NCBI RefSeq assembly: GCF_020991365.1
Contig: NZ_JAJLRA010000009.1
Span: forward strand, 62,001 to 126,000
DNA from: Streptacidiphilus sp. ASG 303
Lineage (GTDB): Bacteria; Actinomycetota; Actinomycetes; Streptomycetales; Streptomycetaceae
Length of the DNA: 64,000 nt
Reading direction: 5' to 3'
The notes beneath the pieces were generated by a model. The model did no database searches, had not been told where the DNA came from, and saw nothing but the letters and a program-made list of their open reading frames with translations. Below are positions 53,766 to 59,434 of the stretch, piece after piece (the stretch's first letter is position 1; every line of letters begins with the position of its first letter). The position numbers were made by a program, and so were the translations under genes.

Positions 53766-54146
53766 GCGGACCTGCCGGGGATCCCGGGCACCGGCCGCCC
53801 GGTTCCGGAGCGGCGGAGCGGCGGAGCGGCGGAGCGGCGGAGCGGCGGAGCGGCGGAGCGGCGGAGCGGCGGAGCGGCGGAGCGGCGGGTCAGGGGTCCC
53901 CGGCAGGGCCGGGATCCAGGACGACCGCCGGTTCCGGCGCCCCGGCCCCGGACGGTCACGGGAGAGGGCCCTCGGGGTGAACGGGCGGCGGCCGGGGGGC
54001 GCCCTCGACGCGGAGCGGAGGCACGAGTCGCGCCCTGACACCTGCCAACGCACCCCCGAGTCGCTACCGTGGAACCCGAAGCCCGGATGTCGTACCGCAC
54101 CCGGGCCTCCGACCACGGCAGCCACCCGCGAGATGCGGAGACCACG
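53766..54146. other. Intergenic region with tandem repeat
   Basis: About 380 bp without a gene. It contains the 8-bp tandem repeat at 53806-53888; the remainder shows no credible start or family signature. Confidence 0.5.
53806..53888. repeat. 8-bp tandem repeat, about ten units
   Basis: CGGAGCGG repeats perfectly about 10.4 times with no interruption. Because the unit is not a multiple of three, every frame reads the same periodic peptide. Such an uninterrupted array is prone to copy-number change. Confidence 0.97.
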
Positions 54147-54452
54147 ATGAGCGCCCACCCCTACGAGCCCGCACCACGCCCGCGAGCCCGGGTCGAGCCC
54201 ACCATCCGCAGCATCCGCAACGCGCTCCCCGAGGACCACCGCGCCGCGTTCCAGGCCGAGATCGAGCAGACCCCCCTGCACCGGATCACCCGGATCCTCG
54301 CCGCCTGGGACGTCCGTGCGCGGGCCCTCGCCACCCCCGAGCTGATGGACGCCGCAGGCCGTGCCGAGGAGCGACGCCTCTCCGGCGCCCCCGCACCCGA
54401 GGTGCTCACCGATGCCGAGGTTCGGGCCCTCTTCCCCCGCCTGCGGCCCTAA
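54147..54452 (+). CDS. DUF6247-like protein, candidate antitoxin
   Basis: 101 residues from ATG 54147 (GCGGAGACCACG upstream). It begins with a Pro/Arg-rich stretch, then RSIRNALPEDHRAAFQAEIE, a pattern seen in DUF6247 proteins of Streptomyces, and ends DAEVRALFPRL. The body is predicted helical (RITRILAAWDVRARALATPE). The next gene starts nine bases later and looks RelE-like, so a type II antitoxin role is proposed. There is no obvious DNA-binding motif. Identification as DUF6247 rests on memory of the family pattern. Confidence 0.7.
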   Translation: MSAHPYEPAPRPRARVEPTIRSIRNALPEDHRAAFQAEIEQTPLHRITRILAAWDVRARALATPELMDAAGRAEERRLSGAPAPEVLTDAEVRALFPRLRP

Positions 54453-54455
54453 CCT
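54450..54455 (+). promoter_or_regulatory. -10 box of a leaderless start inside the candidate TA pair
   Basis: TAACCT overlaps the stop of the DUF6247-like gene (CCC TAA) and ends six bases (GGACCG) before GTG 54462. This would let the second gene be transcribed separately as a leaderless message. Confidence 0.5.
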
Positions 54456-54461
54456 GGACCG

Positions 54462-54707
54462 GTGGCCTATGTGATCGACTTCCCCCGCGACTTCCGCGCC
54501 CAGGTCGAACGGCTGCCCCACCCCGTCCGGCAGGACCTCGAGACGGCCCTCGTCGAGGCGTCACTCGACCCCTACCTGCTGCCGGCCCTCATCGACTCCG
54601 CCCCGCACCTGCGGATCCTGGAGTTCTCCGATCGCGGCACCTGCCTGCTGGTGGTCGACGACATCGCCGAGCGGGTCCTCGTCGACCAGTTCGTCTGGCG
54701 CGGCTGA
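54462..54707 (+). CDS. Small RelE/ParE-like protein, candidate toxin
   Basis: 81 residues from GTG 54462. The pattern VIDFPRDFRAQVERLPHPVRQDLETALVEASLDPY followed by LRILEFSDRGTCLLVVDD and RVLVDQFVW follows the RelE order: N-terminal strand, two helices, the ~dP turn, then antiparallel strands ending with an aromatic residue. It is shorter than typical RelE (about 85-95) and lacks the usual final basic/Tyr catalytic cluster, so toxicity is uncertain. Pairing with the preceding DUF6247-like gene suggests a toxin-antitoxin module. Confidence 0.6.
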   Translation: MAYVIDFPRDFRAQVERLPHPVRQDLETALVEASLDPYLLPALIDSAPHLRILEFSDRGTCLLVVDDIAERVLVDQFVWRG

Positions 54708-54873
54708 CCGTCGGACGCACCCTGGGTGGACCGGGCGGCCGGATCGTGCGGGGCACGCCTGGGAGGTACCAGGCGGAGAGGCCCGGTCCGCGTCGGCGCC
54801 CGGTCGGGGCGGCCGCCGGGCGGGGCGGAGGAGGCTGTTCGCAGCCGAGGGCCCGCCGCCCCGTCGCCCGGCG

Positions 54874-55155
54874 TCAGGCGGGCGGGAGCGTCTGGGCGCG
54901 GTACTGGCGCACGGTGCGGCGCCAGACGGCGGCCGGGCCGAGCGGGGGCTCCTGCTGGGCGGGGGCGAGAAGGCGCAAGCGGGCTTCGAGGACGGCCAGG
55001 CGTCGCTGCAGGTCGGGGTTGCGGCGGGGTGCGAGGGCGGCGTCCAGGCGCAGCAGGGCGGCCTGCTGGCTGAGTTCCTGGTACTCGGTGAGGGGGCCGT
55101 GCGGGGCGGGCAGGGCGTAGGCCAGGCGGCGCAGCAGGTGGAGCAGGCGGTGCAT
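54874..55155 (-). CDS. Small hypothetical helical protein
   Basis: 93 residues from ATG 55155. Leu/Ala/Arg-rich and probably helical: MHRLLHLLRRLAYALPAPHG, then a coiled-coil-like LTEYQELSQQAALLRLDAAL and RRLAVLEARLRLLAPAQ. No family was recognised. TACCAT (55168-55163, minus strand) ends seven bases before the ATG, a leaderless promoter signature that supports expression. Confidence 0.55.
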   Translation of the reverse strand: MHRLLHLLRRLAYALPAPHGPLTEYQELSQQAALLRLDAALAPRRNPDLQRRLAVLEARLRLLAPAQQEPPLGPAAVWRRTVRQYRAQTLPPA

Positions 55156-56343: not shown

Positions 56344-56886
56344 TCAGATGCCGAAGTCGACGAAGTCGATGCCGGTGAACTCCACCTCCAGCCCGGTGGC
56401 CCGGCGGCCGCCGTCGCGGAAGTAGGCGTGGGCGAGCCCCTGGGCGAGGATCCGGGCCTGGTGGTCCTCGGAGGCGCCGGCGTCGCGGGCGGCGAAGAGC
56501 GCGGCCGCGGTCTCGGCGGGGACGTGCTGGGTGATCATCCGCAGCCGCGGGTCGTCGGTGGAGCCGGGAGCCGCGGTGAAGCCGAACCGGGCCCGGGTGT
56601 GGATCACCATGCCCCCGGCCTCCGCCTGCCGGCGGATGCGGCGGCGCACCCGTGGCTGCCAGTCGGCACGCACCTGCTCCTCGATCCGGGCCGCCGCCTC
56701 GGGCCTGGGGTGGCGGTCGCCCTTGAGCCAGTGCTGCACAGCGCGCTGGGACACCCCGAGCCGGAGCGCCAGCGCCCTGGTGGAGCCCTTCTCCCGGCGG
56801 AGCAGGAACCGCAGGCGGGCCGCGGTGGACTGCGGGAGGGGCCGGGTGTGCAGGGCGCGTTCCAGGCCGTCCTCGATCTCGCCCAC
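56344..56886 (-). CDS. tpg: Telomere terminal protein Tpg
   Basis: 180 residues, close to known Tpg proteins (about 184). Shared features: IEDGLERAL at the N terminus, the helix-turn-helix STRALALRLGVSQRAVQHWL near residues 35-54, EEQVRADWQPRVRRRIRRQA, GGMVIHTRARFGFTAAPGST, AARDAGASEDHQARILAQGL and the ending HAYFRDGGRRATGLEVEFTG. In Streptomyces Tpg is covalently attached to the 5' ends of linear DNA and primes telomere patching. Thr-110 in GSTDD lies near where a linking Thr has been reported (around 114), an alignment from memory. It follows tap by six bases in one operon. Confidence 0.93.
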   Translation of the reverse strand: MGEIEDGLERALHTRPLPQSTAARLRFLLRREKGSTRALALRLGVSQRAVQHWLKGDRHPRPEAAARIEEQVRADWQPRVRRRIRRQAEAGGMVIHTRARFGFTAAPGSTDDPRLRMITQHVPAETAAALFAARDAGASEDHQARILAQGLAHAYFRDGGRRATGLEVEFTGIDFVDFGI

Positions 56887-56892
56887 GGCGGC

Positions 56893-59208
<2,316 letters not shown>

Positions 59209-59434
59209 GGCCACCTCCTACGAGTCGTTCCGAGAGCGGTCGGGCGGGCGGGGGACCGTCCCGCGCCGGAGAGGCCCGCGCCGGTCCGCCGCACGGGCGG
59301 CGCCGAGGCGCGCCCGGGCGCCGTCCGCCTCGGGAAGCGGCCGTCGGGCGGCGAGGGCCGCGACCGGGACGGGCAGGTCCGGAGGAAGCGCCCGGGACCG
59401 GGCCCGCGCCCGTGGCGTCGGGGGAATCGGGGCG

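What the first reader, a model, noticed from the sequence alone, without database searches (positions are those of the whole stretch)
54147..54707. DUF6247-like / RelE-like pair as a candidate toxin-antitoxin module
Two small genes nine bases apart; the second follows the RelE strand-helix-strand pattern and the first is a small helical protein of the DUF6247 type. A leaderless -10 box overlapping the first stop could let the second gene be expressed alone. DUF6247 has no established function, so this would be an uncharacterised TA pairing.
Basis: inference. Interest (0 to 1): 0.65.

Follow-up and report, generated by a model that had tools for sequence, protein, structure and literature searches.

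The report
DUF6247 with RelE-fold partner: toxin-antitoxin candidate
Two small neighbouring genes form a pair that recurs in many actinomycetes, and the second has the predicted fold of known bacterial growth-stopping toxins, which suggests that the first, a protein family without a known function, is its antidote.

Summary

Fold: the best AlphaFold2 model of B (pLDDT 92; the other four 49-57) has RelE topology. Its closest solved match is Mycobacterium tuberculosis RelE2 (Z 12.4); 48 of the 50 entries listed are titled as toxins or toxin-antitoxin complexes.

Co-occurrence: of 122 DUF6247 loci examined, 87 have a B-family frame just downstream, against 1 upstream and 0 antisense. Of 25 strong B hits, 23 have DUF6247 9-74 bp upstream.

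Weak relatives of A precede PIN-domain (VapC-like) frames in Actinacidiphila, suggesting partner exchange. The -10-like box on A's stop codon is kept in all five loci of this subfamily.

B lacks counterparts of two of three essential RelE residues, so its activity is open; toxicity is untested. No paper in the library names DUF6247. Most likely an unrecognised type II toxin-antitoxin family: a new variant of a known kind.

The parts
54147..54452 (+). Gene A: DUF6247 protein, 101 aa, ATG start; proposed antitoxin
   Evidence: ORF; PF19760 27.1 bits, cut-off 26.9; upstream of a B-family frame in 87 of 122 DUF6247 loci
54462..54707 (+). Gene B: 81 aa, GTG start; RelE/ParE-superfamily fold; proposed toxin
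   Evidence: ORF; AlphaFold2 best model pLDDT 92.2; VIA-align Z 12.4 to 3g5o_B; leave-window-out profile E 7.1e-7 at Z 1000
54450..54455 (+). TAACCT: candidate -10 box overlapping A's stop codon, six bases before B's GTG; candidate leaderless promoter of B
   Evidence: TANNNT-N6-GTG in 5 of 5 loci of the subfamily; not tested experimentally; no sigma-70 consensus promoter found by scan
54137..54140 (+). GGAG: Shine-Dalgarno-like site of gene A, six bases before its ATG
   Evidence: Sequence; GGAG 6-7 bases before the start in all five loci of the subfamily

Best explanation
The two genes are a type II-like toxin-antitoxin module. A (DUF6247) is the antitoxin, made from an mRNA with a Shine-Dalgarno site. 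B is a small RelE/ParE-superfamily toxin that A holds inactive by direct binding. If A falls (proteolysis, or loss of the DNA that carries the pair), free B slows growth, most likely by acting on translation or another nucleic-acid target. In this subfamily B probably also has a leaderless transcript of its own from a -10 box laid over A's stop codon, whereas most other DUF6247 pairs examined overlap the stop of A with the start of B. Shown here: gene anatomy, recurrence of the pair, predicted fold of B, conserved junction. Inferred: that B is toxic, that A binds and neutralises it, that the internal promoter works. Unknown: B's target.
For: Fold: AlphaFold2 best model and structure matches to RelE toxins; a 29-member profile of DUF6247 partners, B included, hits solved RelE chains of M. 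tuberculosis, Thermus and Pyrococcus at 2e-6 to 9e-6. Co-occurrence 87 of 122 downstream, 1 of 122 upstream, 0 of 122 antisense; reverse test 23 of 25. In 46 of 73 loci with an intact partner frame the genes overlap by 4 bases, in 11 they abut. Weak relatives of A precede PIN-domain frames in 4 of 8 loci read (one tested; profile link). Relatives of B lie on 88 plasmid records. Junction kept in 5 of 5.
Against: No experiment. Only 1 of 5 AlphaFold2 models was confident. B alone and its five-member subfamily hit no RelE chain by sequence. Two of three essential RelE residues have no counterpart. The A-B fusion model is weak (pLDDT 73, pTM 0.61) and gives no interface confidence. 35 of 122 DUF6247 loci have no recognised partner. 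XRE-DUF397, once proposed as a toxin-antitoxin system on genome context, did not behave as one (PMC6262351 abstract).
Confidence: 0.7

Rival explanations
1. A regulatory protein pair and not a toxin-antitoxin module: A and B act together as a regulator, with the RelE fold reused for binding.
For: Precedent: XRE-DUF397 pairs of Streptomyces, proposed as toxin-antitoxin systems; Scr1/Scr2 did not behave as one and instead raises antibiotic production (PMC6262351 abstract). B lacks counterparts of RelE R61 and Y87.
Against: B's fold is that of toxins; relatives of A also go with PIN-domain frames; neither protein matched a DNA-binding family.
Confidence: 0.14
2. B is a ParE-like gyrase poison with A as its antitoxin (a toxin-antitoxin module with a different target from the one favoured above).
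For: ParE toxins share the fold and lack the RelE catalytic set (the latter recalled, from no call). Two of 13 partner proteins scanned score weakly with Pfam ParE_toxin (E 0.08 and 0.1, below the cut-off).
Against: Matches to RelE chains rank above those to ParE in structure and profile search.
Confidence: 0.15
3. B of the window is a decayed or inactive toxin kept with its antitoxin, for example as protection against related active pairs.
For: Two of three essential RelE residues absent; a decayed copy of the pair exists in Actinacidiphila oryziradicis (L043).
Against: B is an intact frame in all five loci, with more change at third codon positions (0.48) than at first and second (0.38, 0.35), and the junction is conserved; the partner clade as a whole, not this copy alone, lacks the R61 counterpart.
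Confidence: 0.1

Closest known systems
RelBE2 and RelBE1 of Mycobacterium tuberculosis (3g5o, 9g12)
   Same: Fold of B (Z 12.4 over 79 residues and 11.3 over 79); small antitoxin gene first, toxin second (for the window; for RelBE by recall)
   Different: A matched no known antitoxin family; B lacks counterparts of RelE1 R65 and Y89; only 15-16% identity
relBE of Escherichia coli
   Same: Fold of B (Z 11.6, 23% identity over 79 residues)
   Different: Essential R61 and Y87 (PMC2807027 passages) have no counterpart in B; A is a DUF6247 protein
axe-txe of Enterococcus faecium
   Same: An internal promoter within the antitoxin gene yields a further transcript that helps set the toxin ratio (PMC3760812 abstract)
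   Different: Here the candidate -10 box lies on the antitoxin's stop codon and would give a leaderless toxin mRNA; different antitoxin family
XRE-DUF397 pairs of Streptomyces (Scr1/Scr2)
   Same: Actinomycete two-gene pair with a DUF protein, proposed as toxin-antitoxin from genome context (PMC2701414 passages; PMC6262351 abstract)
   Different: There no toxin-antitoxin behaviour was seen for Scr1/Scr2; here one partner has a toxin fold

Membership tests
Pfam PF19760 DUF6247 (gene A) | Score over the curated cut-off (26.9 bits) | tested here: met
   27.1 bits for the ATG-started protein, but 23 bits in the six-frame search; profile comparison probability 96.7
RelE/ParE toxin superfamily (gene B) | RelE-type fold | tested here: met
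   Strand, two helices, three strands; Z 12.4 to RelE2, 48 of 50 listed entries titled as toxins or toxin-antitoxin complexes; 1 of 5 models confident
RelE/ParE toxin superfamily (gene B) | Sequence-profile relation to solved RelE proteins | tested here: met
   29-member partner alignment including B: 2.2e-6 to Mtb RelE2; B alone and its subfamily: no RelE hit
RelE ribosome-dependent nuclease | Counterparts of RelE R61, R81 and Y87 | tested here: not met
   R61 column is T60 in B by the alignments; Y87 impossible as B ends at 81; R81 may correspond to R80 but is not kept in relatives. By sequence alignment, not by superposed coordinates. Residue roles from PMC2807027 passages
Type II toxin-antitoxin module | Two small adjacent co-directional genes conserved as a unit | tested here: met
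   87 of 122 against 1 of 122 and 0 of 122; 23 of 25 in reverse
Type II toxin-antitoxin module | Antitoxin binds toxin | tested here: inconclusive
   Fusion model pLDDT 73, pTM 0.61, no interface confidence given
Type II toxin-antitoxin module | Toxicity relieved by the antitoxin | not testable with these tools
   Needs expression experiments
Type II toxin-antitoxin module | Autoregulation through operator binding | not tested
   No DNA-binding family matched in A; upstream regions of the five loci align at 55% mean column identity; no operator analysis was made
ParE gyrase inhibitor | Gyrase as target | not testable with these tools
   Only weak sub-threshold ParE_toxin scores in 2 of 13 partner proteins scanned

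The most novel reading that the evidence does not exclude
DUF6247 is a hub antitoxin family of actinomycetes that accepts RelE-fold and PIN toxins, and in the window's subfamily the unequal wiring is itself the switch: the antitoxin mRNA has a Shine-Dalgarno site, the toxin mRNA is leaderless. If B, like its close structural neighbour M. tuberculosis RelE1 (PMC12620021 abstract), removed the anti-Shine-Dalgarno end of 16S rRNA, the damaged ribosomes would keep making toxin but not antitoxin, a self-reinforcing arrest. The hub part has some support; the feedback part rests on anatomy alone and is weakened by B's missing catalytic residues and its GTG start (leaderless mRNAs prefer AUG, 76.4% in S. 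coelicolor, PMC4895711 passages).
Probability: 0.07. Interest if true: 0.88.

Novelty: new variant of a known kind. Interest (0 to 1): 0.56.

Why it matters
It would give a function to a Pfam family of unknown function found in 159 of 297 Streptomycetaceae genomes and 74 of 345 genomes drawn across the class, and let annotators name a partner that no Pfam model recognised over its cut-off in the 13 partner examples scanned. It also points to a RelE-fold clade without the RelE catalytic set, so a different toxic mechanism may be waiting, and to a testable case of toxin expression from a leaderless internal promoter.

Tried and rejected
Direct search with B alone: 4 of 297 family genomes, the window's own included, and no confirmed relative in a pattern-limited scan of genome contigs; B is too divergent, so gene A and profiles were used. 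A profile of five close A relatives against PDB sequences found nothing meaningful. Fold search with the A-B fusion model listed mostly RelE-type toxin chains, presumably its B part, so the fold of A stays open. No phage record matched A or a Streptomyces B, and no viral contig matched that B in a pattern-limited scan, so phage carriage is not indicated. No plasmid record matched the window's A, although relatives of B are on plasmids. The promoter and terminator scan of 53800-54900 found nothing of sigma-70 consensus type. I considered that the novel Streptomyces pair Orf2769/Orf2770 (PMC6521030, abstract and results section read) might be this family: there the toxin gene comes first and no Pfam domain was found, so I dropped it without comparing sequences. 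A 140-aa partner of a long DUF6247 protein (L147) matched no family and was not followed.

Caveats on counts. The 122 loci are not a random sample: best-scoring hits plus a hand-picked spread from the lists; one of 123 (L065) was dropped for truncation. The single upstream hit (L077) is probably the partner of a second DUF6247 gene next to it (one search lists two in that contig); I did not check this. The B profile was trained on genes next to DUF6247, so it favours such genes; its hits under 45 bits were not examined. The exceptions are L165 (B in one frame with what looks by eye like a truncated A tail) and L178 (no A recognised). The five loci with the conserved junction are related by descent and are not five independent events.

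Full report
What is there. Gene A (54147-54452, +, ATG, 101 aa) and gene B (54462-54707, +, GTG, 81 aa) are open, co-directional and nine bases apart. A has GGAG six bases before its ATG; four relatives keep GGAG 6-7 bases before the start. Codon-position G+C supports both as genes. A belongs, narrowly, to Pfam DUF6247 (27.1 bits, cut-off 26.9; 23 bits in the six-frame search), and profile comparison with eight other DUF6247 proteins supports the relation (probability 96.7, E 4.3e-10). B matches no Pfam, NCBIfam or PADLOC model at E 10.

Relatives of the exact pair. A five-member profile of A finds four other intact loci, all in the genus Actinacidiphila: A. oryziradicis (L039), A. soli (L040, L042) and A. 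glaucinigra (L041), plus a decayed copy without B in A. oryziradicis (L043). A is 46-59% identical to these, B 31-43%. In all four the order, the nine-base gap and the GTG start are the same. B is not found in the two other genomes held of the window's genus, so the pair is accessory.

Fold of B. AlphaFold2 on a five-row alignment gave one confident model (pLDDT 92.2, pTM 0.79) and four poor ones (49-57). The confident model is strand, two helices, three strands. Foldseek ranks M. tuberculosis RelE2 first (E 5e-4), then Thermus RelE and E. coli RelE. VIA-align gives Z 12.4 (2.3 A, 79 residues) for RelE2 and 11.6 for E. coli RelE; of 50 entries listed, 48 are titled as toxins or toxin-antitoxin complexes (RelE, ParE, YoeB, YafQ and HigB types among them), and the other two are a hypothetical Helicobacter protein (2otr) and Txp40 (7xbj, Z 7.3). 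Sequence evidence is weaker: B alone and its subfamily hit no RelE chain, but a 29-member alignment of such partners including B hits Mtb RelE2 (2.2e-6), Thermus RelE (2.4e-6), the Pyrococcus protein 1wmi (6.8e-6) and Mtb RelE1 (9.3e-6). Frataxin hits at E 0.08-0.2 in the same list are taken as chance.

Co-occurrence. DUF6247 is found in 159 of 297 Streptomycetaceae genomes, in 74 of 345 genomes drawn from the class (31 of 127 genera), and in 0 of 14 control genomes. I examined 122 DUF6247 loci (123, one truncated). A B-family profile grown from 25 seeds outside the window's subfamily finds a B-like frame within about 420 bases downstream in 87 of 122, upstream in 1 of 122 and antisense in 0 of 122. 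Trained without the window it still finds the window's B (E 7.1e-7 at Z 1000), although the seed model alone gave only 0.016. In 73 loci with a partner frame in the start window the gap is -4 in 46 and 0 in 11; +9 occurs only in the window within that set. In reverse, of 25 B hits above 45 bits in 197 genomes, 23 have a DUF6247 match 9-74 bases upstream on the same strand. One exception has B in one frame with what looks like an A tail, the other has no recognised A. The 35 DUF6247 loci without a B hit include frames that look broken just after the start of B (for example L066 and L085), but I did not score these one by one.

Partner exchange. Eight weaker relatives of A in Actinacidiphila (L047-L054) were read. 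Four are followed, with a -4 overlap, by a 142-aa frame that in the one case tested is a PIN domain (3.3e-15; VapC model 6.4e-15 but under that model's cut-off). Two are followed by small frames that look RelE-like by eye (L047, L049), one locus is truncated (L048) and one broken (L052). Profile comparison links the PIN-paired proteins to A (probability 91.8) and to DUF6247 (92.7), with few sequences behind it; by Pfam alone the one tested scores 15.4 bits, under the cut-off. An antitoxin type that goes with two toxin classes is what partner exchange among toxin-antitoxin systems would give.

Junction. Aligning A's stop to B's start in the five loci gives TA..CTG.....GTG: the stop is TAA or TAG in all five and each locus has TANNNT six bases before the start codon. 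In the window 3 of 1753 ATG/GTG triplets have this. In Streptomyces the -10 box is TANNNT and about a fifth of mRNAs are leaderless (PMC6742748 and PMC4895711, passages). Against it: leaderless mRNAs prefer AUG (76.4%, PMC4895711) and all five B genes start with GTG; no consensus promoter was found; the five loci are related by descent. An internal promoter has a precedent in axe-txe (PMC3760812 abstract).

Mechanism. RelE cleavage depends on R61, R81 and Y87 (PMC2807027 passages); Mtb RelE1 toxicity depends on R60, R65, R85 and Y89 (PMC12620021 passages). In the profile alignment with RelE1 the R65 column is a hydrophobic residue in the partner consensus and, through alignment A6, T60 in the window's B. 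B ends at 81, so no Y87/Y89 counterpart is possible; R80 may stand where R81/R85 does but is not kept in relatives. B is therefore RelE-like in fold but fails the residue test for a RelE-type nuclease. RelE-fold toxins act in more than one way (RelE1 cuts 16S rRNA, RelE3 mRNA; PMC12620021 abstract), so toxicity is still the best guess, with an open target.

What is known. DUF6247 occurs in none of the 5.39 million papers searched (openly licensed PubMed Central papers only). Two further searches (20 and 15 papers listed) showed no such pair in titles or abstract openings, and passages of the 2009 survey of toxin-antitoxin systems (PMC2701414) showed none. An annotated Streptomyces linear plasmid carries the pair as 'DUF6247 family protein' and 'hypothetical protein' with a 4-base overlap; relatives of B lie on 88 plasmid records. 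Whether toxin-antitoxin databases list the pair could not be checked here.

Verdict. It is best read as an unrecognised type II toxin-antitoxin family: known toxin fold, new antitoxin family, with a sub-branch that may express the toxin from a leaderless internal promoter. The caution is XRE-DUF397, proposed as toxin-antitoxin on genome context, of which Scr1/Scr2 proved to be a regulator (PMC6262351 abstract).

Noticed in passing
window 56344-56886 (-) and 56893-59214 (-): Telomere genes tpg and tap of linear Streptomyces replicons lie 1.6 kb downstream of the pair (NCBIfam Tpg 1.1e-66, Tap 3.1e-289), so this stretch may belong to a chromosome arm or a linear plasmid.
   Followed up: partly
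G000:C132:16275-16550 (L001): The same genome holds a second DUF6247 gene with an 87-aa partner frame (8-base overlap) of a different subtype.
   Followed up: partly
L006, L014, L015, L018, L019, L022, L023, L026, L028, L032, L033: Of 11 top-scoring DUF6247 loci on contigs over 5 Mb, 9 lie within 330 kb of a contig end; of 13 such loci among the weaker hits fetched does. Some occur in both ends of one chromosome (G162, G247, G087).
   Followed up: no
L147 (G433:C49): A 158-aa protein has a DUF6247 match only in its C-terminal part (26.7 bits, just under the cut-off) and is followed by a 140-aa frame without family; possibly DUF6247 as the toxin-binding part of a longer antitoxin.
   Followed up: no
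L106, L107, L108: A 107-aa partner type, a separate BLAST cluster of three, follows DUF6247 genes with a 4-base overlap; the one scanned has no Pfam family.
   Followed up: no
L037 beside the A-B pair: A frame that by eye looks like Ku lies on the other strand's side of the pair in this Actinacidiphila locus, and other loci have other neighbours, so the pair's surroundings differ from locus to locus.
   Followed up: no
window 53812-53888: A tandem run of the 9-base unit GCGGAGCGG (read by eye as repeated gagcggcg) lies in the gap before gene A.
   Followed up: no
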